Of a stretch of DNA of 64,000 nucleotides, positions 5,989-41,240 are shown one piece after another. Source of the DNA: Selaginella tamariscina (taxonomy: Eukaryota > Streptophyta > Lycopodiopsida > Selaginellales > Selaginellaceae). The position numbers and the translations under genes are program-made. The number at the start of each line of letters is the position of its first letter. Within the stretch, counting starts at the first letter, position 1. The notes under the pieces were generated by a model. That model saw only the letters and a list, made by a program, of their open reading frames with translations. It was not told where the DNA came from and ran no database searches. The stretch is from the NCBI GenBank assembly GCA_003024785.1, contig PUQB01000006.1, positions 135,258-199,257 on the forward strand, read 5' to 3'.

Positions 5989-6015
5989 ATGCACATTGTA
6001 ACTAAAGTGGGCATG
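5989..6015 (+). repeat. Element 1 left terminal inverted repeat
   Basis: 27 bp beginning ATGCACATTGTAAC and ending TGGGCATG. It matches the reverse complement of 19828-19854 at 24 of 27 positions. All three differences are transitions, as expected for decay of methylated cytosines. The other copy of this end, at 63098-63124, differs at one base. Confidence 0.8.
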
Positions 6016-6387
6016 ATACGTGAAAATGGAATATAAAATAAATTACTAATTAATACTTAAGTTTTAATTATTAATTAATCATTTAATTAATATGTAATTA
6101 AGCCTTAAATATTAATTAATTAATTAATTAATCCTTCAATAACCTTACTTAGTAAGGAATATTCCTAAAATATCTTAGAATATTCATATTATTCTAAAAA
6201 TAGTTTACAATAATGAAGAAATACTATCAAACATAATTACAAATGAAATCATTTTCTTATCAACATGTTAATTTTTTATAAATACTTTCTTTAACCATAC
6301 AGAGAAATCTTGTCTAAATCATCACTCTCCGGATTAATCAAATCATTTTGGTCAATATCTTGATGTTGTTGCCACCACCTAACACTC
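6016..6387. other. Element 1 left subterminal region
   Basis: Non-coding and AT-rich, with a short run of ATTA units (6111-6132) and GAATATTC motifs at 6157-6164 and about 6178-6185. A single GGATTAATC, the core of the palindromes in the internal arrays, sits at 6331-6339 and is conserved in the second copy near 63450. The region lies between the terminal repeat and the stop codon of the FCP1-like gene. Confidence 0.55.
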
Positions 6388-7440
6388 TCACGAATGCAAT
6401 TGGGAGTTGCCATCCTTGTTAATACATAAGATGTAATAAGAAGGTCTGCATAAAGGCTCATCTAAAAATGACGTTCCTTAAGAATAATATTATAAAGGCC
6501 CGGTTGCTATCCTTCATTTTATAAAATTCAAAATCACGAGAAAGAAAAGCTTCAGGAAATGTTGATACGGTGGATACTGCTCACAAAAATTTTCGAGATT
6601 CTTCTTTCTGAGGCACGTATCCAAGTAGTTCACTAGCTCATCCATGATATCGGTATCAGAATATGGATCGAAAGTGATTGGATGAATACAAGCAATGTTT
6701 TGGTTGAGCATAGCCTTCTGAGGAGAGTCGTCTACTACTAAGATATGTGCATTCTTCATTATCCTTAAGCGACTGATCTCCCCATGAGTCCCAATTATTC
6801 TTTCATTCTTGAAGAAGTATGGCTTGCTTTCCTTTCTTATATTGTGAAATTCGAGAGGTTTATAACAATTCGCTGGTCAAAAATCCAATCTTTACGAATC
6901 ACCTCTTCTGCAACACTACAATGTTTCTTAAGCAAATTCAACAGCGGTGTTAAGTTATGAATCTGCATGCATGACCAAATCCCCACAAGCGCAAGCTTTT
7001 TTGAAAGAGACGATCCAACCCTGGACGAAAAATAATATCATATCGAAATTTACCATGACAAGGAATGAAATCTCCTTGTTTGATTTCTTTTTTCCTATCC
7101 TCGGGCCTTTGTCGATGAAGCAGAACACCATTGACATCCAACAACACAATATGGCCATGAGTAACATGGATAGCGTTGCCTCTTGAATACTTTGCAAATC
7201 ACTTGTTTGCTCCCTTTCACATTTATCCGTTGCCACTATCTCGTTGCCTATCCCTTCATCATTTAATTGTACATCATCCTTACAAGATTCAGATATTGCA
7301 TGCGCTGAAGAAATTGATTTCGGAACTGAAGCCAATAAAAATGATGATGAAAAAACTGAAGTGGCCCCCATGGTAACGATGTTTTGAGCTGCATTATTAT
7401 CCATTTCCTGCATGAACTCTGTCATTCTGACATGTGGCAC
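6388..7440 (-). pseudogene. FCP1-like (NLI-interacting-factor-type) HAD phosphatase gene, frameshifted copy
   Basis: The family hydrolyses phospho-Ser/Thr using an Asp nucleophile; the plant branch often has LDLNG in place of DxDG. In order on the minus strand this gene shows a Ser-rich N-terminal region, the catalytic motif HIVLLDVNGVLLHR (about 7165-7120), FRYDIIFRPGLD, then WSCMQIHNLTPLLNLL (about 6970), then KNAHILVVDDSPQKAMLN with the conserved DDSP motif (about 6757-6705), and a C-terminal NYLDTCL...CEQYPPY segment. The blocks lie in different frames, so this copy is broken or has short introns. The last part is open without interruption in the other copy (63507-63836), with its stop at the equivalent base. 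The neighbour upstream is the ParB-methyltransferase gene on the same strand. Carriage by at least two copies of the transposon makes it cargo or a working part. Confidence 0.7.
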
Positions 7441-7689
7441 AAGAAATTGTCGCCAAACCCCTCTCTTACCTCATGCCAATGCTGAAAATCCATGTTCTCA
7501 ATTGTTTCATTACATCTGCAAAATGATAATTAGCTGACCTTAAAATTATCAAGGTTTACCTTGTTAATGTGTGACCCATGTTTGAACTAAAAGCTTCATT
7601 AATCCTTGAGAATTTATTTTCTGTACAAATATAAACGAAATATACAAAAATGCCTTATGTTACTCATTTACAACTATTCGTCACTCTAA

Positions 7690-10600
7690 GAACTCATTAA
7701 CAATTCTTCTTCGCTATTACCTTCTGAGTGAGGCGAAGAAGGTCTAAGCCGCTTGTGAGATGGTTCAGATCTTCTGTATCTTCTATTGATGTTTCCATGG
7801 GTAATGGAGTGTGCGAATGTTCTGTACTCCTCGAGATAACTTCCGGTCTAATATCTGATTGAAGTTCGTCCTCAGACTCCGACATTGAACCAGATTCGTC
7901 TTCAGAGCTATCGCACTTATCGGAGGGAACTTTCTCAAATACTCCTTTATGGATTCGTTGGGGTAGTCAGTTGAGAACCTATCTATCCACTTGTTCAGGT
8001 CCTCAACCATGGTCTTATCCTTTTCAACGGCAAACACACATGTATCCGAAGGTAACACTCCTTCAAGACGGACCCCCTAGTGCAGTAGTCAAAAACCCAC
8101 GCATCACTGTGAGGACCCCTGATCAAGTTGACGATGCTCCGTGCCGCTTGACTTGTGATGTTTGGATAACGTACATTGCCGAATACGTCACTCTCAGCTA
8201 TCGGTGTATCGGATGGAGGTTCAGGGCCGTTGGAGTGCAAACAGATGCCTGGCCAGTCATTTGGAAGTTTGAAACTGTTTGGCGCATTCCTAACAACCAA
8301 GTGAACAACCGAATCAATGCACTTCGGATCAGCATCATTCATATAAAATCCTGTCCAACGATGTTTATTCCTCTTGGCAAAGGAGAAGGCAAAGGTATCG
8401 GTGACATGAGCAAGAATCAAGAAATAAATACCTGAAAACGTAGATATCAGTCAAGAGTGCAAGTATGAATTCAATAATAAATACCTTCTTTGTACATACT
8501 TGCACGCTAAGTTTCTCCACCAAATCCTCTAGTGTCCTGTCTGTCGAAGGATTTTTTGACACCCGCCGATCCATCACGAACAATTGAAACGGTTTCCTAC
8601 AAGCAGTGATGGTACCCCATAAAGTCTCCGAATCCAACAACAAACATCTGTAGGGCTTGTCGTGATTCGTAGCATCCTCCTTTATAAGGTTCAACTCGGT
8701 TCTCCGCTGCTGAAGGACTGCCATAAGAGAAGGCGTCATCGCAATGTTCTCCTTTTTGGCGTTGGCGTGCAATAGATTCTTGCCCAGATCTTCCGATTGA
8801 TTCACCCATTCGACAAGCATATCATCATTTGTCACATGCAAATATTTGCTGACCTCTTCGTATGTTGAAGCCGAAATCCAACCCAGTTTGTGGCAGTGTA
8901 TTCCCAACCACTCCTTGAAGTGCCTGACCGTCTTCAACTCCATTGCCTTGAGATGAAAAGGAGAGGTGGGGCTGCTGTTGTTAATCTGTAATTTGCCATC
9001 AATCACCAAATCAGCCAAGACTTCCATCTCCTCCATCGTTGTTCCATTTAAAGGCTTCAACCATGTGAGCTTTGAAATCGTTGTCTACATCCTTTATAGA
9101 TTGAACAGACTTAGCCTTCGGCGTCTTACTGGGTTTCTTTGCAGACTTCTGAGGGCTCCACTTCACTTGTCTGCTTCTTCTTCAGTGTTCCTTTTGCAAA
9201 GGATTCCATAATCCCCAACCATTTGGCAAAGATCCTATCCTCGGGACAAGAAATCAACATCATCAAAAAGGATGTTTCCTTCCCGCCCACCTGGGCAAAA
9301 TCAACTGCTACAATTTCTTCAACTCTCTGAAAAAAAGACAGATTAATATACCGGCGAGATAAATCCCGCCCAAACAATTTGCTTACCCGGTAGTCCGCAG
9401 ATTGTGTATTCCCTGCGGTAGCTCTTTGTGGTCGCTGAAGAGATTCCCACACGGCTCGCGTGTGTTTGAACTTCTCCCATATTTTGCTGTTGTAGTGGTT
9501 GGTGTCTGCAGCGTCCCATTCCGCCGATAACTTATGGTACTGCTCGATTGTGAGATTCGGCTTCGCTAAAAACGCCGATCTTTTCGTCAGCTTCTCACGG
9601 GTATGCTCGGAAAGTTTTGTTGCCATCGTTCCTTTGTTGTGTTCGTCGAGAAGTCGTTGGGCTGCCGTTATTGTGTGCTGGCCACTAATGATGTAGTACT
9701 TGATGATTTTCTATTCTCCGTCTGAACCTTCCTCATTTGTTCCGGTGTTGTGATCCACACTTTGTCAGCGCCTTTGTTTCTCTCGTAGTATGCGCACAAA
9801 ACAGCATTATGTGGAACGGTGTAAGAATTGTCGTCCTTCATCTTCTCCATGAGCTCAGCTACACGTTCCTGATTGAGTGGCCTGTAATTGAAGTTTGGGT
9901 TGACGCTGCAATACTTAACCCTACACTCGTAAATCCTATCATCCAACATCATTTCCTTGTGGCTTATTGCAGCATGGGACGCCACAGGTGCAGCTGACAA
10001 AACGACTAATGATTTTCTTCTACGATCCGAATCAACATGTGTGATCCCCGATTGATGCTGTTCTAATGTTCTCGGCACACTCTTCCAGCTCCCGAAATTT
10101 CTAAGCAAATTGAACGTGATCTGTAAAGAACCTGAGACCAAGCCACCCTCTCAATCTCCTTATGATGTCGCTGTGTTCTTCTTCAATGTGAAGAGGGAGA
10201 TTGCTCCACTTGTGATTTTCTGTATTGTGAAGCAATATCCTGACAATACACCTACTCGATGAGTCTGAAGATCTTCGAAGTAGACATCCAGTTGGATCCC
10301 CTCCATAGATGGGCTTTCGTTGAGTTGAAGAAGAACTCCAGGTCAACATCATTAGTGAACACGTGAACGTCATTATCCACAAGTCGACAAAACCACCCGA
10401 AATTAATGTTGTAACTGGCGACCTCTGGATCCGAGAACGTGACATTGGATGGAACAAGGCATATGTGTCGAGCATCGTTCAATCTGGGTTCAGCATGCTT
10501 TCGGATGCTTGACTAGCACACCCACTTTCCATTGTTTTGCTTGTCCATGCGATGTGACAGAGGTTAGTTTGACAGCAACCATGGTTTTCCAATGCGCTTC

Positions 10601-10870
10601 CCGTTTAGTTTGAAATATGGCCAAGTTGATTCCAGAATCCCCCTGCCCATCTCTTCTCCTGCTCTCGTCTTTAATGTCACCTCAATTCCACATCTGAATA
10701 CAAAAATGATTAGTTCAAGCACATATCCGAGTATAACAGATTTTATTTTAATTCTTACCCAGAATTTGACGAACTCCATACTAATGACTCGATCTCCTTG
10801 TTTAATTAAATCGTCCTTCTGCAAAATAATACACTATGAATACAAATCATATAAAAACGCACACACACTT
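7690..10870 (-). CDS. Element 1 ParB-like / beta-class methyltransferase-like protein gene
   Basis: The gene reads right to left. The N-terminal part (10824-10101) includes GIEVTLKTRAGEEMGRGILE and FGWFCRLVDNDVHVFTNDVD and resembles nothing I know. The ParB-like domain follows: YRPLNQERVAELMEKMKDD (about 9890-9835), then after one frameshift KYYIISGQHTITAAQRLLDE (about 9705-9645), the counterpart of the ParB xxDGHHRxxA motif. A helical region (9626-8365) leads into FQLFVMDRRVSKN, at the place of motif IV but lacking DPPY. Then come AWVFDYCTRGSVLKE (about 8105-8060), a motif-I-like glycine segment, and TCVFAVEKDKTMVEDL, the usual acidic strand after it. Motif IV before motif I is the beta-class order. 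An acidic tail ends near 7697. Apparent single-base frameshifts lie near 9710 and 8058. The start is uncertain. Palindrome array A begins about 230 bp upstream. I infer DNA binding plus a methylase fold of doubtful activity. Confidence 0.65.
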
Positions 10871-11099
10871 GTATAAACCCGAATATACAAAAATAATACA
10901 CAGAGAGAAGTGGAGGAATTAACTGTCCAAAGCTCACTTTGTGCTAGTGCAAAAGAAAGATAACATTTCGTTTTAGAACCACCACAAATGTGAGCTCTGG
11001 ACAGTTTTACATAGTTTCCTAGCTTTTACTCGAAATATTATGATAAGATGATAAAAGTAAATAAAATGAGATATGCAACTTATATATACTAATACACAT

Positions 11100-12335
11100 A
11101 TATATTCACATGGAAGGTGCGGCGGGATTAATCTCGCCACCCCTTCAATGCCTCCTGAAAGAGTGGGCGGGATTAATCTCGCCACCTTTCTGGAGGCCTT
11201 GAACGGGAGTGCGGAATTAATCTTGCCACCCTTCTCGGTCTCAGAGAGAACTGGGCAGGATTTATTTGGCACACCCCTTCAGTGACTCCAGAAAGGCGGG
11301 ATTAATCTCGCCCACCATGTAAGGGATGGTTAAATGAATCTCGCCACCCTTCCCAGTCTCTCCATTGGTATGTTGTAAACCTTCTACGTTTCAGACAGAA
11401 ACGTTTGGGATTGGTCCGACTCACCAAGGAGTAAAAAAGGAAGGGTGGCGGGATTCATCCCTCCAACAGGCATTGAAGGCTCGGCGGGATTAATCCCCGC
11501 CCAGGCCTTCACTCGGTCCCTATGCGGCGGGATTAATCCCGCCGGACGCCAATGCCCTACGCGGGAATCCGGCCTAGGCCCTTCAGGCAGGCCTTTGGCG
11601 GCGGGATAAATCCCGCCCGATTCCCGCAGGGCATGCGTACGCGGGATTAATCCCGCCGCCCAGGCCCTTCACTCGGGCCTTAGTCGGCGGGATTAATCCG
11701 TCGGACGCCAATGCCCTAGCGGAATCCGGCGGATTAATCCCCGCCTAGGCCCTTCAGGCAGGCCTTTGGCGGCGGGATAAATCCCGCCCGATTCTGCACA
11801 GGGCATGCGTACGCGGCGGATTAATCCCGCCGCCCAGGCCCTTCACTCGGGCCTTAGTCGGCGGGATTAATCCCGCTGGACGCCGAATGCCCTGTGCGGA
11901 ATGGCGGGATTAATCCCGCCGCCTAGGCCCTTCAGGCAGGCCTTTGGCAGCGGGACAAATCCCGCCCGATTCTGCGCAGGGCATGCATACACGGCAGGAT
12001 TAATCCCGCCGCCTAGGCCCTTCACTCGGGCCTTAGTCGGTGGGATTAATCCCGCCGGACGCAATGCCCTGTGCAGAATCCGGCGGGATTAATCCGCCGC
12101 CTAGGCCCTTCAGGCAGGCCAATGGCGGCAGGATAAATCCCGCCCGATTTCGCACAGGGCATGCGTAGGCGAAGGGATTAATCCTGCGCTCATTTGGCTA
12201 ACCGAATAACCTGCATGAAATGGCGACGGGATTAATCCCGCCGCCGAGTGGCTAATTATATAGCGGCAGGATTAATCCGCCGCTACACACGTCTCCATAT
12301 AGCGGTGGGATTAATCCCGCCGCTACACACACACA
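11100..12335. repeat. Palindrome array A of element 1 (about 25 GATTAATC-centred monomers)
   Basis: The core monomer is the perfect palindrome GGCGGGATTAATCCCGCC, repeated about 25 times at roughly 40-48 bp spacing, with some decayed copies (GATAAATC, GACAAATC, missing G). Between 11480 and 12200 the spacers alternate in a fixed order (a GCCTAGGCCCTTCAGGCAGG type, an AGGGCATGCGTACGCGG type, a CCCTTCACTCGGGCCTTAG type, a GGACGCCAATGCCCT type). That gives a higher-order repeat of four monomers; the last spacer recurs at about 11541, 11701, 11878 and 12057. The block is GC-rich in an AT-rich neighbourhood and lies directly upstream of the ParB-methyltransferase gene. Confidence 0.9.
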
Positions 12336-12660
12336 CACAGATATATATATATATGTATATGTGTGTGTAGGAGAGTGCTTGTGTGTGCTAGAGATAGTCA
12401 AATCAGATAAAATTTATATAGATACACACACACACACATATATATGTATATGTATATACAGGAGAGTGCGTGTGTGTGCAAGAGATAGATAAATAAATAT
12501 GTGTATATGTTATCATGTGTATGCGTGTGTGAAACAAATAAAATCATATAGATAAACAAACACACACACACAACACACAATATATAATATATATAATATA
12601 TATACAGGAGTGTGTGTGTGTGTGCGAGAGAGATCTATAGAGAGAGAGAGAGAAGGGATA

Positions 12661-12715
<55 letters not shown>

Positions 12716-12860
12716 CGAGTGTTCGTTGTGTGTGCGAGAGATAGAGATCTAATATATATTTTAAGATACACACACATATAAATATATGTGAATAAAAAAA
12801 ATAAATAAACTCAGAGGAGTGTGCGTGTGAGAGAGAGAGAGATCTCACCTATTGTGAGAG
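12336..12860. repeat. Microsatellite block (CA/GT, GA, TA) with recurring GAGAGAT(A/C)T phrases
   Basis: Alternating (CA)n, (GT)n, (TA)n and (GA)n tracts, including a GT tract of about 40 bp at 12671-12712. A larger phrase recurs about every 110-130 bp: an ACACACAC tract, TATATAT, then ACAGGAG(A)GTG, TGTGTGTG and GAGAGAT. So it is a tandem repeat of a compound unit, not simple slippage alone. The Cys/His/Tyr-rich frames across it are artefacts. Confidence 0.8.
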
Positions 12861-13196
12861 AGAGAAGAAGATTTCGCGCCGCCTTACAAACCTAGGAATA
12901 TACTTAAACCTTAAAAGGAATAGAATATATATTAACCCTAATCAAATATTCCTTCTAAGATATACTTAAACCCTAAAAAGAATAAATTATAGATTCGCCC
13001 TAAATGAATATTCTTTCATTATATTATCAGCGTGTGCATGTGCATGGGTGTATCACATACACCCCAAGAATAAATATCATGCAAGGTTTTAACACGTGTG
13101 TGTCCATGAGAGTGTTTAAAGTTTCACATGCAGCGATACATATATACACACATAGTATTATACACATAGACATACATAATATTAGTACATATTAAT
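12861..13196. other. Non-coding spacer inside element 1
   Basis: Contains two copies of an approximately 66-bp phrase (about 12897-12960 and 12960-13020: ATATACTTAAACC, AAAAGGAATA, CCCTAA, ATATTC). No gene is seen. Confidence 0.5.
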
Positions 13197-13870
13197 ATTA
13201 GAGACAGAGTACAGGATCATGTATGGGTGTATGTATGAGAGAAGAGTGACAATACATATTATGGATCATGCATGGTGGTGTATGTTTGAGAGAAGAGAGA
13301 CAATACATATTTACATGGATCTGCATGGTGTGTATGTATGAGAGAGAGAAGAGTGTTAACAAATTAAATTCATACACAATGTCATTGCATATTATTAGTA
13401 CACAATATACATACATACGTGTATAACACAAACATACATACATATTACATGTGTAAATTCAATGTGTTACAATAGGGTTTAGGGTTTAGGGTTAGGATGG
13501 ATATGCATGGTGTTTATGTATGAGAGGAGTGAGTGTTATATACAAATATACATTATACATATTACATAATATTGTAACATCAATACATATTATGGATCAT
13601 GCATGGTGTGTATGTATGAGAGAAGAGACAGGCTACATATTATGGATCATGATCATGCATGGTATGTATGTATGAGAGAAGGGATTATGCATGGTGACAC
13701 TGTGTATGTATGAGAGAAGAGATAGAGTGTTAACAAATGAAAACCGTACACATTGCATATATTAGTACACATATATACATACACACGTGTATACACACAA
13801 ATATACATGTGTAAATTCAATGTGTTACATATACACAGATTGAGTACATATAAATCATACATGTGTTGAA
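13197..13870. repeat. ATGGATCATGCATGGT tandem repeat with higher-order period of about 375 bp
   Basis: The phrase ATGGATCATGCATGGTGTG, then TATGTATGAGAGA, recurs at about 13217, 13260, 13314, 13497, 13592, 13642 and 13685. Two larger units (from about 13330 and about 13705) both continue with GTGTTAACAAAT, TTAGTACAC, ATACATAC, CGTGTATA and TGTAAATTCAATGTGTTAC, giving a higher-order period of about 375 bp. Non-coding. Confidence 0.75.
13474..13496 (+). repeat. Short interstitial plant telomere repeat
   Basis: About three units of TTTAGGG (AGGGTTTAGGGTTTAGGG, then TTAGG) sit inside the satellite block. This is far too short for a chromosome end. It could be a telo-box promoter motif or a repair scar. 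Confidence 0.8.
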
Positions 13871-14039
13871 CATGTGATTTTTCAATAAAGAAGCAACATA
13901 TAATTTCTCAAGTTTGGTTTAGGGCAATGTGCATGTGTGTGCATATGTGTCTTTGTAAGTGCTTCTAATGCGTGTGCACGTGTATATATAAATTTATAAT
14001 CGTGTTTATATATAATATGTGCAAAACAAACATCGAATA

Positions 14040-14770
14040 ATTAAGAAAATAATATTAATATACACACTATAAACATTTTAAATTATACATAATAATATAT
14101 GATTTTATCTAATATATAGCCATATATAGTTTTAATAATATATATTAATTTAATATTGATATAAGGTTTAACATTGGAATATTCTTGAAATAATAAGAAA
14201 TTAATTGAGAAAATCCCATTAATATATACAAATGTAGATCAAGTATTGAAATAATTAACTAAATTAATTATGTAATCATGTTTAATATTGAATATTCTTG
14301 GAATAATAAGAAAATAATAAAGAATATCACATTAATATAAAGAAGATTAATTACTCAAGTAATTAAGAAAATGAAATTAATATACACACTATGAACATAT
14401 TTTAAATTATACATAATAATACATCATTTTATCTAATATATAGTCATATATAGTTTTAATAATATATTAATTTAATATTGATAATAAGGTTTAACATAGG
14501 AATATTCTTGAAATAATAACAAATTAATTGAGAAAATTCTATTAATATATACAAATGTAGAATAATTACTGAGATAATTAAGAATAAGACTAATTTAATT
14601 ATGATAATCAGGTTTAATATTGGAATATTCTTTCAATATTAAGAAATAATAAAGAATATCTCATTACTAGTAGGAAATGTAAATTAATTACTCGAGTAAT
14701 TAAGAAACTAATAATAATAAACAGACTATGAATATATTTTAAATGATACATAATAATATATCAATTTATT
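14040..14770. repeat. AT-rich tandem repeat, period about 330 bp, about 2.2 copies
   Basis: Copies begin at about 14040, 14366 and 14700 (partial). Each carries ATACACACTAT(A/G)AACAT, TTTTAAATTATACATAATA, TAGTTTTAATAATATA and GGAATATTCTTGAAATAA in the same order. The rest of the 13870-15370 region is AT-rich with no convincing gene; the frame at 14933-15193 is a low-complexity accident. Confidence 0.75.
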
Positions 14771-15384
14771 TATTGTTAGTGTATATATATATATAATATA
14801 AAACTCAATAATATATACTTGAATATTAAGAATGTAGAACAATTATAAAAATTTCGTAATATTAAACAGCTTGAAGCACTTGAATAACATTAAATGCAAT
14901 TTTAAAATACTCATTGGAATTGGAGAGTATATATGTCAGACTGTTGGTTATTTGTTTCAACTCATCTTAAATTTTCTTTTTTGTTATTTCAAAAATTTCG
15001 AATTTCTGACATAAGTATTATCAGTCTGACATGTAAATTTGGAAATACATTTAATTTCCCACTCAAATTCAGATCTGGTTCTTTCTCCGGCAAGGGTTTC
15101 TTTATTTTTTTATTTTTCACTCTTCAGATTTTCTTTTTTTTTTTAGTGATCAGCTCAGGAGCGACATTAAATTGGGTGCGCTATTGTTTATAGGAAAGCA
15201 CAGCGCTTCAGTGCTGTTTACAAGTAAGTATTATAAACAAATTTAGATATATATAAAGATTCACTCTCTTACATTCTCTCTTAAATTTTAAAATTTAGGG
15301 ATTTAGGAATGCATTAGGATTACAATATATTTTGTTAGGATTTATCCCGTTTAAATATACCTTTAACTTAATATTCTCGGTTAG

Positions 15385-16095
15385 TCGGGGCGGCGGGATT
15401 AATCCGGCCATTTTTTTTCACCTCTTTGAAGAGGTGGCAGGATTAATCCCGCCACCATCTCTTTCATAATTATGGCAAAATTAGTTCGGGCAATGCTTTT
15501 CCGCCTCTTAAAAAGAGCGGCGAGATTAATCCCGTCGATAACTCTCTCAATTGATAATGATTTACTAAAAAGAGTTGTTGGCGGGATTAATCTTGCCAAC
15601 CATTTTAGGAGGCAGAGAAGGGGTGGCGGGATTAATCTCGCCAATACTTCCATGTTTTAAATATTTGTGGGTAGAATTCATCCCGAATCTCTTTGAAATC
15701 ATAGTTTCGGAGAGAGTTGTGGACGGGATTATCCCGCCGCTTATTCCCCGTCGTCAGAGTTGTGGGCTGGATTAATCCCGCCGCCTATTCTCTGTCGATG
15801 TTGTGGGCGGGATTAATCCCGTCCCCTCTTCCTCGTCGGAGGAATTTGCGGCGGGATTAATCCCGTCGACTCTCACATACGAGGAAGATCCGGCGGCAAG
15901 ATTAATCCCGTTGGTACTTCCTCGTCGGAGGGAGCCTGCGGCGTGATTAATCCCGCCGCCTCTCTCGACGAGGAAGTATCGGCAGCGGGATTAATCCAAA
16001 CGACTCTCTCCGATGGGGTAGAGTCGACGGCAGAATTAATCCCGCCGACTCACTCTGAAGGGGTAAAGTCTGCGGTGAGATTAATCCCGCCCATC
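15385..16095. repeat. Palindrome array B of element 1 (about 15 GATTAATC-centred monomers)
   Basis: Same core as array A (GGCGGGATTAATCCCGCC and variants) at about 40-55 bp spacing, but with different spacers, many of the type CTCTCCGACGAGGAAG or its inverse. It ends about 170 bp before the open reading frame of the transposase. Each divergent gene of element 1 therefore has its own array just upstream. Confidence 0.9.
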
Positions 16096-16263
16096 AGTTA
16101 TATTAATAAAGCATGAGATATTATCTTTATACATAATTATGTATTATTGCACATGCATATTATTAAGCAACCGCAGTTATGATTTCTTAGAAATATTGCA
16201 AACAGATATCATAAAAACACAATTATTTATGTGCACGACAATATGTATAATATGGAGATAAAG

Positions 16264-19252: not shown

Positions 19253-19827
19253 ATGTTAAATCCATTCGATATGGGTGGATGTCAAGAAGCGTTGATAAAG
19301 TCACGATTAACAAAACTGCAAGGGAATGTATGTTTTCTGAAGCTTAAAGCAATTACAAAATTATAAAATATCATATATTTAATATTCATAATTATTATAA
19401 ACTCTTTAATAATAGTACCAAATTGTTTACTTAACTATATAAATTTAAAAAATGATATGGAAGATTGACTATATTATTATAGGATTTTATATATATATTA
19501 TTACTACTACAAATTTTTAATTAATAATGTTATATTTAAATATTAATATTTTAATAACAACATCAATATTTATATAATGTACCTCTTATGCTCTTCCTTA
19601 ATTGTTATATTAGGCAATATATTATATATAATTTAATACCTTCTACTTTTATAATGTTATTAATTTTTGTTCAATGAATGCTATAATTTATTAAAGGGTC
19701 GAATACAAAATAGAATATTCTAAAGAATATTCTGTTTTCAAACATATATTCTAAAGAATATTCTTTAATATTAGAAAATGCTAATTAAATAGCTAAATTG
19801 CTAATTATTAGGAAATGGGACTAGAGC
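19253..19827. other. Element 1 right subterminal region
   Basis: Non-coding and AT-rich. Bases 19711-19766 hold a cluster of AGAATATTCT palindromes, including GAATATTCTAAAGAAT (19713-19728). The same 16-mer occurs at the left end of element 2 (33392-33407). Confidence 0.6.
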
Positions 19828-19854
19828 CATGCCCATTTTAGTTACAACATGCAT
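19828..19854 (-). repeat. Element 1 right terminal inverted repeat
   Basis: The reverse complement reads ATGCATGTTGTAAC and ends TGGGCATG, matching 5989-6015 at 24 of 27 positions. ATTA follows at 19855-19858. Confidence 0.8.
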
Positions 19855-29103: not shown

Positions 29104-30350
29104 CATTGTTTTACCTTGAATTTATAAAAAGAGAGAATAAACATACTCAACATATCTTGACATTAATAGAGTCCCAACCGAAGAGTCGAACACAAATTTC
29201 GATTATAATTGACAGAGCCGAGGATGCACAGGTAACTTATTAGGAAACAACTATAGAAATATAAATCTCTCTTTCTCTCACTCACACACACACACACCGT
29301 GTATTGGCAATAATCGTTGCATTTCGTGGAAACAATGCCATTCAATGTATGTTTTAAAATCTGTTGAACTTGTGAGTTTTATTATAATTACATGCAAGGC
29401 TTTGAGCATGGTGGATCGGCAAGATATGGCTTTTTTTATTCGGCTCAAGAGGATATATTAGAGAAACTGGAAGAAAAACCTTAAACACAAGGACAATGAA
29501 CACGATGCAGAGGTAAACTACTAAATACAAAAATAAATAGATATAAAATAATGGAAGCTAGGTAATATGTAAATAGAGTTTAGATATTTACAGACTATCG
29601 CATGCGTATGTGTGTGTGTGTGTGTGAGATATATGCTTGTTAACAGGAACCGTCCCAGACTATAGAAGTTTCCGAAGGTTTACAGTCTGTTATGCCTTCT
29701 CATGGACATCAGTGATTTCAGAGTCGAAGTAAGCTATATTCTTATTCAATAAAATAAATAAGTAAGTCTATTCATTTAATCAGGAGAGTGCAGTCATATA
29801 ACGGGGGATTACAAAGCTCAAAGTCTGAGACCTTACCAGCTGAGAATGTGAGCAGTTATATTGAGAACCTTGATATAGAGAAACCCGGGCATCACCTCGG
29901 AGAGTACGGGCGTAAACCCAAACCCAGGCAGCACCTCGGACAGTACGGACCCATCTCGGATGTGTTTCCGTACAACTTGGACAGGGTGAGAGATACCATC
30001 TCAGAAGAAGACGAGGCCATTCATTCGGGTTTAAGTGAAGCCGACGAGAAGAACATGCATCGTCTAGCTTACGATGCAGTCCGTGACACGGTAATGGTTT
30101 TGGATTATTTATATCACTAATTAAGTATAATAATTATTAAACACTGTATAGCTCAAGGAGCTCTTGGAAACTCACCAAAAAAGCTAGAGTTTTCATAACC
30201 GGACATAGTCTTGGAGGCGCTACAGCTGCGGTATTCACTTCACTTCTTTTTCCACAGCAAGGAGATGCCATCGCAAGCAGGCACATGTACACACACGCAC
30301 GCACGCACACACACAGTTTAATATGCTATGAAATAGGTTAGCAGCTTGTA

Positions 30351-31021: not shown

Positions 31022-31033
31022 CACACACACACA

Positions 31034-31110
<77 letters not shown>

Positions 31111-33229: not shown

Positions 33230-33340
33230 TTGCGATCCTAGAATTGCTGCCTTGAGCCTCATGCAAAGGTGGCAGAGTTATTATCTCGTCGAGCTTAATG
33301 TTATTTGGGATTCTTAAATTGGCAATCCTCTCTAACTTGA
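33230..33340 (-). pseudogene. Older element-2-type methyltransferase gene, 3' fragment left of the insertion
   Basis: On the minus strand, 33340 downward reads KLERIANLRIPNNIKLDEI. This aligns with ELGRIAMNRIKENIQPEEI in the methyltransferase-like gene of element 2. The remaining part of the older gene continues at 41241. The last 17 bases (33324-33340) are repeated at 41241-41258. Confidence 0.6.
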
Positions 33341-33563
33341 GTCCCGACAAAAAGAGGCTTCCAGGCTTCCGGGCTTCCGGGCTTGGACCCGGAATATTCT
33401 AAAGAATCTACCAGAATATTCTTAGAATATTCCTAAATATTCTTAGAATTTAGGATTTTGGCTTAGTCGGCAATTAACAACAAAAAATATTTAAATCATA
33501 GCCATGTTTATACTGTATTATTAAAGTTTTATTTCAACACCAAAGAGTATAATTCAACACTTG

Positions 33564-36500
33564 TCACTTCTTCTTACGATTGAGCAGTGCTGCAATTCGT
33601 GAACCACCAGCCCTACTTGACGTTGCTATTGGTTGGGTTGGGATTTCCTCTGGCTGGATGTTCTCTTTAATCCTGTTCATAGCAATTCTCCCGAGCTCAG
33701 GGTTCTTCTCAGTCCCAACAATGTTTCTCCCCAGCTCGATAGCTGCAAGCATTGAGGACCCCATACCACTGCCTATATCCCAGATAAGATCATCTGGCCG
33801 GGTGAGTCGTTCTATCACGAGCTGCATCAATCGAGTGCTCTTCGGTTGGTAGTCCATCCTGCATGTGAAGATAATGGTAAATACTTAAATTGTTGAAATG
33901 AAATGCCTACCATGGTTCTTGGAACTACTCAGGATTATCAACAAGAATTGTTGATGACAAACGCAGCGGATTATCGCGCAATCCTCTAGATGCATCTTGG
34001 AAGACAAGAAGGAGCAGGATGCTCTCCTATTAAAACATCAAAAATCATTAATGAACTTCATGAATAAAGAAAAAAGTACCTTCATCTTGTTGCGGTAGCC
34101 CCAACCACGCCCTCTGTAGATGTAGTACGTTGCAGTAAGTTGAAGGTCCACCACACTTGCAGCTCGGACAACTTGATCCCAGGTGTTTGCTGTAGCAAAC
34201 ACAACCAACCAACCATTTGCAGCCATAGCATACTTGCAAACTGGAGTGGCTTCATCGAACTTCACTGGATCAAGGTAGAGGTATGGCGTATCACTCGTTG
34301 TATTTCCTGGCAAGGTCCCATTTGGAAGGTCGAAGATCACCAAGTTGAAACCATATTCTCCCGCAATATGCTGGTAGCGAGTCTGGCTGTCAGCTGTATG
34401 GTACCTGGCCACCTGTGTCTGAACTTTTCTATAAGGAACCAGTCTAGCGTCAGGAACCTCCTCTTCCTTCTCATCCGTGAGCACGGCCTGTTGCATCTCC
34501 TCGATGTCATCAATCGCCAAGAAATTATCACCTCGAGTTGTAGCAAGTGAAGGGACGAATGTGACCAAGTCATCCTTGATGTCCATGGTTCCCTGCGATG
34601 GTAGCACTTCAGATAAATTGAAGAAGGCAGCTGGATCGCGAGTAGTGGAGGTGCCAGCTACTGTATCTGAGGTCTTCTTTGACTGCTGCACAGGCTGACG
34701 CCGCTTTGCCTTGGCCTTTGTCTTCTTAATGAAGTCGACCTCTGCCGGATCCCATGAGATGCATGGGAGATCTTTTGAGTGTTCATTGTAGAGATCCTTC
34801 TCCCATGTTGGTGGTTGCCCAGGTGGATAATCAAGCCAGAACGGTACGTGTACACGTTCGAACTCTGTCAGGCCAGATCTTGTCTTCGACCACATGTGTG
34901 GTGCTTCCATGTAATCTGACCAGAATACCATAGTCTGTGTGTGAGGCACCTTTCTCGCTGCGACATACCTGTAATGAACATATAGTAGTGTCAGAATGTA
35001 ACAATGTCAAGAAGATCATCCTTACCTCCAAATCATCCTTCTTGCTGTCTCTTCGTGTTCGAGGAACTCTTTCGGCTCTATGGAGTAAGTGAACTTCACA
35101 CACTCATGGAATGGCTGGAACATCACGTTCTTGCATTTTACCCGCACTTCATCGTACCAAGTCGTGAAATCTGTAACCGGCCTGTCCACTCGCCATCCTC
35201 GATGAGTCCCGTGAGAATCTGACTGCCTCCTCTCTGATGCCGCCAATACAAATCGATAGTAAACCACCTTATCCACTCCTTATCCTGAACACCCGGCAAT
35301 CCAAGTGTCTCTTGCTCTCTCTTCAGATCGAGACGTACCAGTTTATTGAAGTACATGATTCTCGTCTCGTTTGGAATTCTCGCCCTTGAAAGCGCGTACA
35401 GCTTTTCCAACCCCATCCATCTGCATTGTTTCCATGTGATTTGGGTCACCTTGTCGAACCACTCTTCACCCAATGCAGGATCGATGATGGCTAAGATCTT
35501 CATCATGCGCTTGTCATGCTTAATGTAGACCTGTTGTTGCTCCTGGTATTTGTTGCCTTTGGATGCCCTTGCAGCCTTCTCAAGATCATCCTCAATCTCA
35601 CTCTGTAATTCACAGACGTAATCAACTAAGTAATATAAGTGTGAGACGTGGTACCTCAAAAAAGATCTTTGCACAGATCAAATTCGGAAGTGGATGCCAA
35701 GCTTGTTGTCCAGTCGCGCTTTCCTTCCACTTTCTTATGTCATCTCGTTCCTTGTCACTGAGCCTGGCCAAGATCTTCGCTGTGCCCTCCTCACTGGTGC
35801 AACATGTCTTCACAGATAGCAGAAGATGTGGCAGTGTGGTTTGCACTGCCGTTGCGGAGGAACTGCATATTTGAAAATCTCGAAGTTAGTTAATCCTATG
35901 ATCTAGAGGTCACTATGTTTACCTATTAATTTGCTGAAACATTGTCACAAGCTGAAGATTATCCATGACCCCAGCACGGATGAAGCCTGAACGCACTCTC
36001 ACTGCCCACTGATTCTTATCTTCCGTGTCTTCTGTGTACAGCTTCTGAAGCACCTTTAGCCTGTGATTACCATCCCAACAGATGAACTTCTTCATCGAAA
36101 GCATTGGTGCCCATTGCCGGAACATGTCAGACTGAAGCTCCTCCTCAAAAGCCAAATGCTGAGCATACATCGCTTCATCGCTTCTCAATGCTGCCAGATC
36201 TGCATCTGTCATGGGGTCCCCAACTTGAAGGATGAACTGAGTGGTGTTGCGCAAATAACCAACTGCCTTCTTGAAACTCCTAGTCAAAGATTCCAGATCC
36301 GCTGGATTGACTCTCCGCACCTGCTCATTTCCCAGAATTCGGCAAATAGGGACATCCGGTGCCTCTCCATATTCTCGGATTGTGATCTTCGCGAGAAGAC
36401 GCACTGCACTCTCCGAATGCATGCTGGCTGCAATGTTGTAAACTTCCTCATTATCTGGCACTTCTGCTTTACCCTTCTTCTTCTTCTTAGCAGCCTCTGA

Positions 36501-36865
36501 ATCTCCAGCAGCTTTGCGTCGTCTCTTCTTGCTCTTGGGTTCATCCTCTTCGTCACTCGACAAAGTCACTGCTGTGCTGTCTGCTCCTGTGTCTCCTGTG
36601 GTAAGACATCATCCTCAACTTCTTCAACAAAGTCTGATTGTTCTTGTTGGGGTTGAACTACATCCTCTTGCTCTCCTGACCAGTCCTGCTGGCTTGCCTG
36701 TTCAACTGGAGCATCACTTGAAGGTCCTTGTTCCTGAACCACAGCCAGCTTCCTACTTCCTCTCCCACGACCCCGACGCCCTCTCTGAATTGCAGCTCTA
36801 GCTTCTGCTTCTCTCTCAGTAGGCTCCTTCATCTTCTTTTCTTGTAAACGTTGTGAAGAGCGCAT
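33564..36865 (-). CDS. Element 2 ParB-like / beta-class methyltransferase-like protein gene
   Basis: Start at 36865 (MRSSQRLQEKKMKEP). A low-complexity acidic and Gln-rich region with an RGRRGRGRG stretch is followed by a nuclear-type basic run KSKKRRRK (36569-36480). The ParB-like domain includes RVNPADLESLTRSFKKA and ICWDGNHRLKVLQKLY (about 36090-36045), the counterpart of ParB DGHHR. Helical exons follow at 35850-35650 and 35600-35030. The exon 34970-34080 holds FNLVIFDLPNGTLPGN (motif IV position, DLPN instead of DPPY). After two short introns comes YQPKSTRLMQLVIERL, then LIWDIGSGMGSSMLAAIELG and IVGTEKNPELGRIA (motif I and the acidic strand). This is the N4/N6 beta-class order. The stop is at 33564. 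Apparent frameshifts lie near 36575 and 35165. The first palindrome of the array starts about 86 bp upstream. Catalysis is doubtful without DPPY. Confidence 0.75.
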
Positions 36866-36950
36866 CTACAAAAGCAATAAGGTTTAACAAAAAACTGTAA
36901 TAAATGTTCAAAGATGTTTAATAAAAATTAAAAAAACATACTAGCCCTCA

Positions 36951-37390
36951 CAGTCGGCGTGCCGACTGAGAGAGCAGTTGCTGTAAGTCCCAGTCGGCAT
37001 GCCGACTGGGCCTGGCACAAAGGGAGTCCCAGTCGGCATGCCGACTGGGACTGGCATCAAAGGGAGCCCAGTCGGCATGCCGACTGGGACTGGCAACAAA
37101 GGGAGCCCAGTCGGCATGCCGACTGGGACTGGCAACAAAGGGAGCCCAGTCGGCATGCCGACTGGGACTGGCAACAAAGGGAGGCCCAGTCTGGGACTGG
37201 GAACGAAGCAAGGCCCAGTCAAAATGCTAGGTGGGACTAGAACAGTCAACCCTAGTCAAAATGCTGACTGGGGCTGGAACAGTCAACCCCGGTCAAAATG
37301 TTGACTGGATCTGGAACAGTCCACCCCAGTCGGCCTGCCGACTGGGACGGACAACGAAGTCAGTCCGAGTCGGCAGGCCGACTCGGATTT
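36951..37390. repeat. Palindrome array of element 2 (CAGTCGGCATGCCGACTG), 39-bp period
   Basis: Five perfect copies of a 22-bp palindrome, whose inner 18 bases are CAGTCGGCATGCCGACTG, start at exactly 36989, 37028, 37067, 37106 and 37145. The period is 39 bp and the spacer is ACTGGCAACAAAGGGAG. An imperfect copy precedes them (36951). A copy at 37185 has lost the palindrome centre (CCCAGTCTGGG). Degenerate copies follow (about 37220-37310), then two more palindromes with changed centres at about 37323 (CGGCCTGCCG) and 37368 (CGGCAGGCCG). The array lies between the divergent genes, next to the ParB-methyltransferase start. The proteins it appears to encode in several frames are artefacts. Confidence 0.95.
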
Positions 37391-37879
37391 CTTGCAACTG
37401 TGAAGAGATGTAAAAAGATGAACAGATCATGAAAAGATCATGAGCAGATCATGAAGAAATCAGAAAATACTCACCCCCTCAATGGAAGCCTATTGTGATT
37501 AATCCCTGGAGCCACACTTGCTCCACGCTATGCCCCCAAATGAGCCCCTGCTCCACGAAAACCTAGCCGCCCTAGCTGCCCTAGCCGCCCTAATTGCAAA
37601 ACCCTAGCCGCCCTAAATCAATTAAAAACCAACCTAATTTCTGTAAACATATTGCATGCATGATCGCCACTTGTACATAGTAAAACTTTTTAATTTACAA
37701 AAAACCTACCCAGACGCAGTAAATTAATTTCACTCTTCTACCCAGACGCACGCAATTAATATTATTTTTAATATTTGTCAATGAAATGATTGCCTCACGA
37801 CTAACAAACACATTAACCATCGTGTGTAATATGTTCATTGTCTTTGAATTTTAACTTTTGTTTGTTCCATTTTTGCTAC
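37391..37879. other. Leader region of the element 2 transposase
   Basis: Contains short repeats (CCCTAGCCGCCCTA type, 37560-37610) and AT-rich sequence. No separate gene. It probably holds the promoter and 5' leader of the rightward transposase. Confidence 0.4.
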
Positions 37880-40800
37880 ATGGCAAGAATCAGCTACAAT
37901 GGTGTTGACAAGGACTTCCCTGCAGATGAAGATGGTATTGCATTTGTCTTTGAAACAGATCTCAGGTCTGCATTTGACATTCCACCTTGGCAATCTTTTA
38001 AAGTGCTGCATTTGATGTCTGTTGTTGGTGGAGATGCTGCGAATGTTGAGGTAGAACCAGAAGGGGCAAGAGCTAGCAGTTTTGTGTATTACACACTTCT
38101 TCCTTCCAAAGGACCGCTATTCCGGTTGGAGACAACAGATCGGGACAATTCTATGGTAACAATACTTCGCAATAGTCAGAGATGTAGGATTGGGAAGCAA
38201 CTGGTGGTCTCGTCATCGATTCAGCAAGTTGCTGAGGTCCCAGAAGATTGCAACGGAAATGTGATTTACGAGTTGCCAGCACACGAAACAATGAAGGACA
38301 AGTACAAAGGGATGAATAGGAAGGATGGGTGTGATTACTGGACTCAACGCTGCACAACACATTGGAATGTTCCAGCTCGTGTTAGTCGCAGTTCATGTAT
38401 TGGCCACATGAAATGCGTAAAGGAAACATGTCCGTTCATCAGCTTCAGTAAGAAAGCAAATGACTGCCAATTTAAGGGCACCATTGATAAAGTCCAGTTA
38501 TCTTCAGATGGTAGAGTGCTTGGAATGAAGTGTGTGCATTGCAACAATGAGCCCCTTCTAGTGCAGACATGCTCCGTTGTTGCATATTACATAATTCCAG
38601 ATGATATCACATGCACGAGGCTTTTCATCCATCTTGGAGAACATCAACACCCACGTAGACCACCCGAATCCATGGTCTCTAAAGACAGAGCTAAGGAGAC
38701 AATCAACAAAGCAGTCGCTGCAACCCCAAGAACTAATCAACGTGTCATAGAGTTTCAAGCAGCACGCAATATAATTTTGGAAAAACTGGTAACAGATTCT
38801 GGAGATGTATCATACGACAAGGTTCTGTCAGATCTACTACCACTCACAAATCACCGCCGGTAAGCAAAAAAATTATTATTTCCTTTTGAGAGCTTAACCT
38901 TTCCACTGTAGAACAAGAGAATGGATATCTCAGGCTAGAACAAGAGACACTCGTTTCAAAGAAGGTTACGAAGGACTTCTGCAGTTAAAGAAGAAGCTAT
39001 CAATCCCATTCATACATGTTATCCACATACCCGGAATGGACCTCAACGGAGCTGAAGAGCAGCCTTTAATCTTCAAAATGACGTTGCCGGCCCAGGATCC
39101 GGAATAGACTACATTAGAAGGTGTCAATCTGGAGGTGATCTCGAACAGCAGTGGGTGGTGCTAGACCACACATATCGTATTGATGATTGGTGTACACTGG
39201 GAATACATCTCTATGATCCATTGTAAGTATTAACATATCTATGTTTTAAAATACTTACTAATATAATGCACTTATGTTTGTGTAGTTTAAGGTCGATGGT
39301 GACACTTGCTTATGGTGACATGATCAGGGAGGATAGTGTGGCGGTGATCAAATTTTTGAACACTATGCTTCAAGTGTGCAGCAAGCAAGGACTTCATAAT
39401 GTGAACTTTGCGGGGTTCATGTCAGATGAGTCAGGTGCAATTTGGTTAGCATTGCGTCAAGTTTTCAACAATGGGTCAAAGATGAGAGGAAGAGAAAGGA
39501 GTTGTTTGTTCCATTACATGCAGTCAGTGCGTCAAGTTACAAAGAAGTGGATACTTGAGGAACACAGGGAGGAGCACATGAACCTTGCACGCTCATGGCC
39601 TGCAGCACTAACCAACCAAGATAAGTTGGAACGACGAGTAATGTTGGAGTCATTTTGGGAAGGCAGGTCCAGTAACGTTAGCGCTTTGCAAACATGGCTG
39701 TCATGGTGGGCAAGACATGAAGATCATATTTCCATGACAGAGATAATTGACTTGACAGAAGATGGTGTTGCGAATGTGCCTACCACTAACAACTCCGAAG
39801 TTGTTCATGCAAGAGCACGAAGAGCAAGGCTGACGAAGCGTGTTCCTTTGTTGGAGGCAACAATGTTAGATTTAACAGATGCTGTTTTCCAAAGTGCAAA
39901 GGTCAAGGCATCATTTGAAGGGAGATATTCAGGCACAGGTCCTTCCATGGAAACTCTTCTGAAACGTGCACAGCAGAAACTTTCAGCGGGAAAATCAGTG
40001 TCTCCAACAACTTTTGCAAATCTTGTTAGTGATGAAGAGCATCTTGCAAGTCCAGAGTTTGCCTCTACAACAAATGTTCGTGTTCGAACCGTTCGTCAAC
40101 CGTCAACTGGGGACCATGGGATTGATGCACTTCGTACACATAGACATGACACACAATATGCAGAACAAGTCATCCCAAATGCACGCAGGAAAAAACTCAA
40201 GTTTCAAGATGTCAATGTCACTGAAAGAGAGACGTTGATGACTCAGTGGGCCATCAGACGCATTGGGGAGGCAAGTCAGGTGAAATGTCTAGGTCTCACT
40301 CAGGACGGTAACAGCAAGTGTGGCAGACCCATAGGATATCCACATCGTGTACCGGCACCAGGATTTCACGGTAGACGGCAATATACAAATGCATTTGGGA
40401 ACATTGAGTTCACTCATCAGATGTTATGGTTCTGCCCACGCGATTCTTGTTGCTTCAGACGACCATATGCAGGGATTCCTCCTGAGAGTATTCCAGAAGT
40501 TCCAGAGGTTTGGCCAGTTCAAAAAGGAACAAACTTGAATGCAAATGAGGTTGAAGCTCTTCTGAAAGCAGGATTCAAGTTGGAGGGATTTGAAGAAATG
40601 GTAGACGACAGTAGTAGCCGAATGGATCGAACACCATCACCACCAAGAGGAGAGGGAGCACATAGAGTACCAACATACCATGGACGGAGTGTGCGAACAC
40701 CAACAAGAATGTCCAAGGAACATGAGAAACATTACAACCAGGCAAAGATTCTTCAAGGTCGGATCAACAACGTGGAGGTGGTTCAAAGAGGGAAGACTGA

Positions 40801-41073
40801 GGCCTTCATTGTCTCTGCAGGCATGCAATCTGCTAAGGTAACAATTTCTACTGTTCCGTCATGCACTTGTGCAACTTTTCAGAAAGCCAAGAACTGGAGC
40901 CCCTGCCAACACATGTATTTTGTGTACACTCATGTTCTTGGATTGACCCAACGATTACTTACTTCTTACAGAGGCGGACCCTTACTCCAGCAGAAGTGCA
41001 TCGGTTATTGGTTGATTGCAAGCGCAATGTCGAACCTGCGACTTTTAAGTTTAGTCGGTATAGTAAAGTCTAG
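37880..41073 (+). CDS. Element 2 MULE-superfamily transposase
   Basis: MARISYNG at 37880 is chosen as start; an in-frame ATG at 37838 adds 14 residues. Exon 1 (to 38862) carries a zinc-finger-like region with DYWTQRCTTHWNVP, CIGHMKCVKETCPF and HLGEHQHP, reminiscent of WRKY/GCM or FLYWCH DNA-binding domains. Intron 38863-38911. Exon 2 (38912-39222) has WVVLDHTYRIDDW with the first catalytic Asp, after one frameshift near 39090. Intron 39223-39284. Exon 3 has GFMSDESGAIWLALRQVF (second Asp) and CLFHYMQSVRQ, the CxxHxxQ signature of MULEs. TNNSEVVHARA probably holds the catalytic Glu. Near the C-terminus is CTCATFQKAKNWSPCQH, a SWIM zinc finger, as in many plant MULE transposases. A one-base shift near 40945 moves the tail (TPAEVHRLLVDCKRNVEP) to another frame ending at 41073. 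The DDE core is recognisable but this copy is probably damaged. Confidence 0.8.
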
Positions 41074-41240
41074 TCGGCAAATAATTAGCGTTTTTCACTT
41101 GTTGGTCGGCATTTTATATTGAAAGTTAAAGATAATCTACTTGGCAGAATATTCTAGAATATTCCCGTTTATTTGACAGAATATTCCTGGATATTCGGGA
41201 ATATGCGAAAAGCCCGTTGTACGAAGCCCGGTTTTTTGCT

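What the first reader, a model, noticed from the sequence alone, without database searches (positions are those of the whole stretch)
5989..41240. Two DNA transposons with unrelated transposases share a ParB-methyltransferase gene plus a palindrome array
Element 1 (DUF7869-like transposase) and element 2 (MULE transposase) each carry a divergent gene with a ParB-like motif (ISGQHTITAAQ; WDGNHRLK) followed by a beta-class methyltransferase-like domain (FDYCTRGSVLKE; WDIGSGMGSSMLAA). Both have tandem perfect palindromes at about 40-bp spacing next to the gene starts. Seen directly: the motifs, order, orientation and arrays. Known: bacterial ParB binds palindromic parS, and beta-class methylases have motif IV before motif I. 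Inference: a portable module in which the ParB-methylase protein recognises or marks the element's own palindromes, for silencing evasion, copy control or transposase recruitment.
Basis: partly seen in the sequence, partly recalled or inferred. Interest (0 to 1): 0.93.

Follow-up and report, generated by a model that had tools for sequence, protein, structure and literature searches.

The report
Transposons with palindrome-flanked methyltransferase-like genes
An abundant jumping gene carries, next to its transposase, a second gene with a bacterial-type DNA-methyltransferase domain, and a row of perfect DNA palindromes lies between the two genes, which suggests that the element makes its own regulator or silencing-escape protein; whether the neighbouring element does the same is not shown.

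Summary
The arrays are real: all 12 GC-rich perfect palindromes of 14 bp or more in the 64 kb lie in two transposons. Element 2 is 33339-41247, with 9-bp target duplications and two divergent genes. Twenty further copies were fetched, and 3 of 21 aligned copies encode an uninterrupted 1015-aa second protein. Its C-terminus is a beta-class N6/N4 methyltransferase (Pfam 3e-9; full-domain profile match to phage enzymes). A diverged sister family, E3 (64% identity in chosen blocks, synonymous sites saturated), keeps the gene, the same altered motif IV (DLPN), and arrays of the same half-site, TGCCGACTG (two loci: 9 and 7 sites, expected 0.2 each). That supports a selected protein plus a conserved binding site.

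The ParB domain is unconfirmed in both elements. In element 1 no methyltransferase could be shown, and its protein shows no detectable relation to element 2's. So "one shared portable gene" is unproven; a similar layout in two elements is confirmed. Best reading: an element-encoded DNA-binding regulator acting at the shared promoter array, VANC-like in role, methylation activity uncertain. New variant of a known kind.

The parts
33339..41247 (.). Element 2, full-length DNA transposon, starts GAGTCCCGACAAAAAG, ends TTTTTTGCTAATCCTC; flanked by 9-bp duplication CTCTAACTT
   Evidence: alignments of 20 fetched copies start at 33332-33396 and end at 41207-41256. read by eye: exact 9-bp duplication in 15 of 21 copies, 8 of 9 bases in two, partial or none in two, not readable in two
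33564..36865 (-). Element 2 second gene (methyltransferase-domain protein), six exons: 36865-35923, 35862-35655, 35602-35026, 34968-34080, 34026-33911, 33858-33564; this copy broken (16-bp and 1-bp deletions, other small differences, TAG in fifth exon)
   Evidence: GT/AG at every intron in 19 of 21 copies; 3 of 21 copies (L012, L024, L027) encode an uninterrupted 1015-aa protein
33564..33858 (-). Exon with methyltransferase motif I (DIGSGMGSS here; DIGSGTGSS in intact copies), SAM-binding half of the beta-class N6/N4 methyltransferase
   Evidence: Pfam PF01555 E 3.1e-9; phrog_67 E 9.9e-12; PDB MboIIA E 3.6e-4
34080..34550 (-). Part of exon with motif IV position, FNLVIFDLPNGT
   Evidence: profile alignment places DLPN on DPPY/DLPY/DIPY of phage methyltransferases; DLPN also in sister family E3
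35922..36443 (-). Putative ParB-like region with WDGNHRLK
   Evidence: Motif only; no family match; AlphaFold single-sequence pLDDT 49
36960..37387 (.). Palindrome array between the two gene starts, 22-bp palindrome built of half-site TGCCGACTG, 39-40 bp period; 5 to 11 perfect cores per fetched copy
   Evidence: at least one perfect palindrome in 10 of 10 loci found through the gene instead of the array (L031-L034, L042-L047)
37880..40985 (+). Element 2 transposase gene (MULE-like; SWIM-like C-terminus)
   Evidence: SWIM E 0.017-0.025, below cut-off; frame-broken in the three copies read
33392..33432 (.). Left subterminal GAATATTC palindromes (33392, 33414, 33425)
41147..41186 (.). Right subterminal GAATATTC palindromes (41147, 41157, 41179)
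   Evidence: at least 2 in each terminal 300 bp in 19 of 21 copies
5990..19853 (.). Element 1, DNA transposon with terminal inverted repeat TGCAcaTTGTAACTAAAgTGGGCATG; second copy at contig C948 about 198351-213345, which enters the window at about 63094
   Evidence: copy identity 92-95% over the two long pieces; 6-bp duplication TATTGA at copy 2, not exact at copy 1
7740..10800 (-). Element 1 second gene (ISGQHTITAAQ near 9690; FDYCTRGSVLKE near 8080); frame-broken here; this gene region is very numerous in the genome
   Evidence: 150 of 4895 candidates scored, 150 matches; no methyltransferase or ParB family match
6514..7470 (-). Element 1 third gene, NIF/FCP1-type phosphatase-like (LLDVNGVLL), frame-broken here
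   Evidence: PF03031 E 6.6e-9, tested on the copy-2 sequence; counterpart visible in the window
11105..12330 (.). Element 1 array A, palindrome GGCGGGATTAATCCCGCC, beside the second gene's start
15395..16090 (.). Element 1 array B, same palindrome, beside the transposase gene's start
16251..19252 (+). Element 1 transposase gene (DUF7869)
   Evidence: PF25273 E 8.5e-27
6157..6185 (.). Element 1 left subterminal GAATATTC (6157, 6178)
19713..19763 (.). Element 1 right subterminal GAATATTC (19713, 19725, 19756)

Best explanation
Element 2 is a two-gene, MULE-like DNA transposon. Its second gene makes a large protein with a C-terminal beta-class N6/N4 methyltransferase domain and an N-terminal region that may be ParB-like. 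Inferred: this protein, probably as a dimer, binds the half-site TGCCGACTG, whose paired copies stand about three helical turns apart in the shared promoter region. There it controls both genes and helps keep the element from being silenced, the job VANC proteins do for Arabidopsis VANDAL elements. Shown: anatomy, high copy number, intact frames in some copies, purifying selection between families, kept half-site. Inferred: binding, the binding partner, the effect on silencing. Element 1 has a similar layout and may work alike, but with a protein not shown to be related.
For: Divergent two-gene layout with the array between the starts. Twenty further copies fetched; 3 of 21 aligned copies with an intact gene. 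The 20 were picked by their array, so array and gene occurring together there is by choice; but 10 of 10 loci found through the gene also have the palindrome. Methyltransferase by Pfam, PHROG, PDB and profile alignment. Sister family E3: 64% identity over 345 codons in five chosen blocks from three loci, pN 0.24 against saturated pS 0.83. E3 arrays carry the element-2 half-site, one mismatch allowed: 9 in 700 bp against 0.21 expected, and 7 in 1501 bp against 0.15 (two loci of one family), with paired half-sites 32-33 bp apart (E2: 30 bp). Exact half-sites occur in the window only in the array. Array length varies from 5 to 11 cores, like the VANC target arrays described in PMC5735166 (passages read).
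Against: No binding data. The transposase is about as conserved between E2 and E3 and could be the binder. ParB is unconfirmed. The motif IV aromatic is lost. No expression or methylation data. Element 1 does not show a related protein.
Confidence: 0.45

Rival explanations
1. The array is the transposase's own internal binding or promoter element (autoregulation). The methyltransferase-domain protein is a separate helper, for example in transposition or in protecting excision sites.
For: The transposase is about as conserved between E2 and E3 as the other gene (tblastx segments 38-79% against 40-79%), and the array lies between both gene starts.
Against: The exact half-site is absent from the element ends, where a transposase should bind (all 12 window half-sites lie in 36960-37345); the ends carry a different motif, GAATATTC.
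Confidence: 0.25
2. The protein is an active N4-cytosine or N6-adenine methylase that marks the palindromes or the element, hiding it from silencing or controlling copy number.
For: Intact SAM motif DIGSGTGSS and D and P kept in motif IV; ParB-N6N4 methyltransferase fusions exist in phages (PMC12704722, passages read).
Against: Motif IV aromatic replaced by N in both E2 and E3. No modification data available here. The palindrome does not show which base would be marked.
Confidence: 0.17
3. The palindromes are mainly structural: cruciforms or hairpin RNAs that feed or block host small-RNA silencing, and the second gene has an unrelated function.
For: Palindromes can form hairpins; element 1 has a similar layout with a different palindrome sequence.
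Against: The half-site sequence, and not only its symmetry, is kept in E3, where the paired halves are separated by about 23 bp.
Confidence: 0.13

Closest known systems
Arabidopsis VANDAL elements with VANC anti-silencing proteins (PMC5735166, passages read)
   Same: MULE-type element (so classed in PMC12730594); extra gene besides the transposase; short motif arrayed in tandem in noncoding parts; array length varies between copies; targets differ between related families
   Different: VANC has no methyltransferase domain (recalled); the VANC21 motif YAGTATTAY is not a palindrome and is arrayed in one orientation; anti-silencing has been shown for VANC, not here
Fungal DNA transposons of several superfamilies carrying TET/JBP dioxygenase genes (PMC12730594, abstract start and passages read)
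   Same: A DNA-modification-type gene carried by DNA transposons, in that case by unrelated superfamilies
   Different: Oxidises 5mC; not a methyltransferase; no promoter palindrome array in the passages read; gene homology across superfamilies shown there, not here
Cytosine methyltransferases taken up by retrotransposons of dinoflagellates and charophytes (PMC5890265, title and abstract start seen in the listing)
   Same: A DNA methyltransferase gene inside a eukaryotic transposable element, charophytes included
   Different: C5-cytosine methyltransferases in retrotransposons; here an amino-methyltransferase domain in a DNA transposon with a palindrome array
Phage and prophage ParB-CTPase fold proteins fused to N6_N4 methyltransferase (PMC12704722, passages read)
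   Same: Proposed domain pair; methyltransferase family PF01555
   Different: ParB part unconfirmed here; eukaryotic, intron-bearing, transposon-borne; altered motif IV
Bdelloid rotifer N4-cytosine methyltransferase (PMC8885841, abstract start seen in the listing)
   Same: Amino-methylation of bacterial type in a eukaryote
   Different: A shown 4mC mark there; here a multicopy transposon gene with unknown activity

Membership tests
Beta-class N6/N4 DNA methyltransferase (PF01555), element 2 | Match to the family model above the curated cut-off | tested here: met
   37.6 bits against cut-off 26.7, E 3.1e-9; SAM-binding half only
Beta-class N6/N4 DNA methyltransferase (PF01555), element 2 | Motif IV before motif I along one domain | tested here: met
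   Profile alignment of E2+E3 to six phage enzymes over 180-210 columns, probability 98.7-99.1; the six (of seven fetched) were hits of element 2, so not independent for motif I
Beta-class N6/N4 DNA methyltransferase (PF01555), element 2 | Catalytic motif [DNS]-P-P-[YFW] (recalled) | tested here: not met
   DLPN in E2 and E3; D and the second P kept, aromatic lost
Beta-class N6/N4 DNA methyltransferase, element 1 | Family or profile match | tested here: not met
   Nothing in Pfam or NCBIfam; profile score 10.4 against 20 shuffles of 10.3-21.3; reversed control 26.9
ParB-CTPase fold | Sequence or fold match to ParB | tested here: inconclusive
   No ParB match for E1 or E2; AlphaFold without alignment pLDDT 49; whole-genome search with PF02195 did not complete
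ParB-CTPase fold | Arginine of the P motif (conserved, per PMC12704722) | tested here: inconclusive
   Element 2 has GNHR; element 1 has GQHT, without arginine; alignment to ParB not established
MULE (Mutator-like) superfamily, element 2 | 8-11 bp target duplication (recalled) | tested here: met
   Exact 9 bp in 15 of 21 copies, read by eye
MULE (Mutator-like) superfamily, element 2 | MULE transposase domain match | tested here: not met
   No MULE model at E up to 1 in Pfam; SWIM E 0.025, below cut-off
VANDAL/VANC | VANC homology and sequence-specific loss of DNA methylation | not testable with these tools
   No methylome; no VANC comparison made; compared as works-like only

The most novel reading that the evidence does not exclude
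A mobile ParB-methyltransferase and palindrome-array module, once of phage or plasmid type, has been taken up independently by unrelated eukaryotic DNA transposon superfamilies (at least the element-2/E3 lineage and the DUF7869 element 1). It acts there as a self-recognition system: a ParB-like clamp loads at the palindromes, spreads over the element, and marks or shields it from host silencing.
Probability: 0.15. Interest if true: 0.92.

Novelty: new variant of a known kind. Interest (0 to 1): 0.66.

Why it matters
If the element-2 protein binds its array, it is a transposon-encoded regulator built on a bacterial-type amino-methyltransferase, which was not found for a eukaryotic transposon in the word searches made here (open-licence papers only). 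It would give a second case of array-targeted silencing escape besides VANC, with a defined half-site that makes the test simple. Two elements with unlike transposases and a similar layout would point to convergent or exchanged solutions to host silencing.

Tried and rejected
Protein database search: three searches, none with a match. Searches (element 2 with lysine-rich start, 7998 candidates scored, E up to 0.1; residues 600-840, 1801 candidates, E up to 0.01; element 1 reading frame of copy 2, 4096 candidates, E up to 0.01). The method needs shared 5-residue words, so this says little about distant relatives.

Structure: one AlphaFold job without alignment, unusable. No second job was run, because spliced proteins and loci of the fetch from genomes are not on the tool's list of accepted sequences.

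Mutation footprint: copy-specific C-to-T/G-to-A changes gather at the ends of element 2 and nearly vanish around the array (37 singletons per 431 GC sites in the left 1 kb, 28 per 375 in the right 0.86 kb, 1 per 833 at 37390-39390). This would fit methylation of the ends with a protected centre. It was NOT taken as evidence: other changes also fall about tenfold outside the array, and repeat centres can be homogenised by assembly or polishing. No control family was run. L018 and L023 share their left flank, so the copies are not all independent.

Selection within the family: 30 nonsynonymous, 22 synonymous, 5 stop changes against 36.2, 16.7 and 4.1 expected; too weak to use.

Element 1 against element 2: blastp and hhalign gave nothing, and shuffles do as well (11 of 60 shuffles reach the ParB-region score). 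A reversed element-1 control scored higher against the phage enzymes (26.9) than the real one (10.4).

E3: the C516 locus is rearranged inside and the E3 5' part was not found in the C885 stretch, so E3's counterpart of the GNHR motif could not be read. In L059 the 700-bp stretch counted was chosen after the sites had been seen; the whole 5001 bp holds 11 sites with at most one mismatch.

The seed-free-plant host was not tested (the PF01698 search did not complete).


Full report
What is there. The window is 64 kb of a 300.7 Mb assembly in 1391 contigs; intron-bearing genes show it to be eukaryotic, and the host was not identified. Element 2 is well bounded: 20 further copies, fetched because they carry the array, align from 33332-33396 to 41207-41256 (L018 ends with its contig, L011 has an inner deletion), the long pieces at 95-99% identity. 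Exact 9-bp target duplications can be read in 15 of 21 copies, 8 of 9 bases in two more (read by eye). Element 1 runs from about 5990 to 19853 with inverted ends TGCA..TTGTAACTAAA; a second copy starts at about 63094 and continues outside the window at 92-95% identity over its two long pieces.

The palindromes. Of 115 perfect palindromes of 14 bp or more, 12 have GC 0.4 or more, and all 12 are in the two elements' arrays; 20 first-order resampled sequences gave 0-3. Element 2 has CCCAGTCGGCATGCCGACTGGG every 39-40 bp between the starts of its two divergent genes, with 5 to 11 perfect cores per copy in the 20 fetched copies. Element 1 has GGCGGGATTAATCCCGCC in two arrays, one at each gene start. 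Ten loci were reached through the second gene and not through the array: the four best matches and six of its more diverged ones. All ten hold at least one perfect element-2 palindrome; the six diverged ones hold one to six each.

The second gene of element 2. Six exons with GT/AG borders in 19 of 21 copies; 3 of 21 copies encode an uninterrupted 1015-aa protein, while the window's copy has a 16-bp and a 1-bp deletion, other small differences and a stop. Its C-terminal exon matches N6_N4_Mtase above the cut-off, phrog_67 at 9.9e-12 and MboIIA in the PDB at 3.6e-4. Together with its sister family it aligns over the whole domain with six phage methyltransferases, motif IV before motif I. Motif IV reads DLPN; the six phage enzymes read DPPY, DLPY or DIPY. 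So the SAM motif is whole, the aspartate is kept, and the aromatic that should hold the target base (recalled) is gone.

A sister family tests the idea. A whole-genome search with PF01555 scored 150 of 739 candidates, and 150 matched. Judged by their frames and bit scores, most listed rows are element-2 copies; others belong to a diverged family, here E3. E3 carries relatives of both element-2 genes, though the one longer locus read (C516) is internally rearranged. Its second gene is 64% identical to element 2's over 345 codons in five blocks chosen for being alignable, taken from three loci; synonymous sites are saturated (pS 0.83) while pN is 0.24. This is purifying selection on the gene across the split. 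DLPN is kept. E3's noncoding stretch next to this gene's start holds the half-site TGCCGACTG, one mismatch allowed, 9 times in 700 bp (resampled: mean 0.21, maximum 2 of 100 runs) in one copy and 7 times in 1501 bp (mean 0.15, maximum 1) in another. The two loci are of one family, and the 700-bp stretch was chosen after the sites had been seen. In E3 the halves are not fused but stand 32-33 bp apart, start to start; in element 2 the outward pair is 30 bp apart. A kept sequence with a kept spacing near three helical turns is what a protein-binding array should look like.

What is not there. Neither N-terminal region is recognised as ParB by any library used. Element 2 has GNHR, fitting the conserved arginine of the P motif (PMC12704722, passages read), but that is a motif, not a test; element 1 has GQHT. 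Element 1's supposed methyltransferase does not score above shuffles, and a reversed control scored higher. Elements 1 and 2 show no pairwise protein similarity above chance. Element 1's second gene is very common: 150 of 4895 candidates were scored and 150 matched. Element 1 also carries an NIF-type phosphatase-like gene. So the claim of one shared gene is unproven, while the claim of a similar layout holds.

A further shared feature. Both elements, and the readable end of E3, have GAATATTC palindromes close to their ends: element 2 has 3 + 3 in the terminal 300 bp and none inside; element 1 has 2 + 3 (and 5 inside); the 41 kb of window outside the elements has 2. GAAnnTTC is also the core of heat-shock elements (recalled). 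Unlike transposases with like ends suggest a common host factor, or exchange.

How it probably works. The best-supported reading is a transposon-encoded DNA-binding regulator at a shared promoter array, in role like VANC of Arabidopsis VANDAL elements, where motif arrays that grow and shrink direct anti-silencing (PMC5735166, passages read). Shown here: layout, abundance, intact genes in some copies, selection, half-site conservation. Inferred: that the second protein and not the transposase binds; that it acts on silencing. Active methylation is possible but less likely because of motif IV. A mutation pattern that looks like protection of the centre is reported but not used, since assembly homogenisation predicts it too.

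What is known. Carriage of DNA-modifying or silencing-related genes by transposable elements is known: TET/JBP genes in several fungal DNA transposon superfamilies (PMC12730594, abstract start and passages read), cytosine methyltransferases in retrotransposons of dinoflagellates and charophytes (PMC5890265, abstract start in the listing), and VANC. ParB-N6N4 methyltransferase fusions are known in phages (PMC12704722, passages read). A transposon with a beta-class amino-methyltransferase gene and a palindrome array was not seen in the listings of four word searches, which cover open-licence papers only. Hence: a new variant of a known kind.

Noticed in passing
6157-6185, 19713-19763, 33392-33432, 41147-41186: GAATATTC palindromes near the ends of both elements and of E3 (L051, contig C516 761099-761136), rare in the window outside the elements (2 in 41 kb); they resemble heat-shock elements (recalled)
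   Followed up: partly
33339-41247 and copies L009-L028: Copy-specific C-to-T/G-to-A changes cluster at both element ends and almost vanish around the array; a methylation footprint or an assembly artefact
   Followed up: partly
6514-7470: Element 1 carries an NIF/FCP1-like phosphatase gene reading DVNGV where the family usually has DxDxT (recalled)
   Followed up: partly
930-2360 and 22944-24374: Inverted repeats about 78% alike that lie on either side of element 1, about 3 to 4 kb from its ends; nature unknown
   Followed up: no
28947-30335 / 49837-51424 and 31457-32568 / 45214-46504: Duplicated segments (77-89% identity) on both sides of element 2; a tubulin-tyrosine-ligase-like reading frame at 46810-47469
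   Followed up: no
L018 and L023: Same left flank of two element-2 copies on different contigs, so allelic or duplicated contigs in the assembly; many copies differ by small indels that may be assembly errors
   Followed up: no
L059/L051 (contig C516 754300-762373): E3 copy in which an inner part of the element lies inverted relative to the rest
   Followed up: partly
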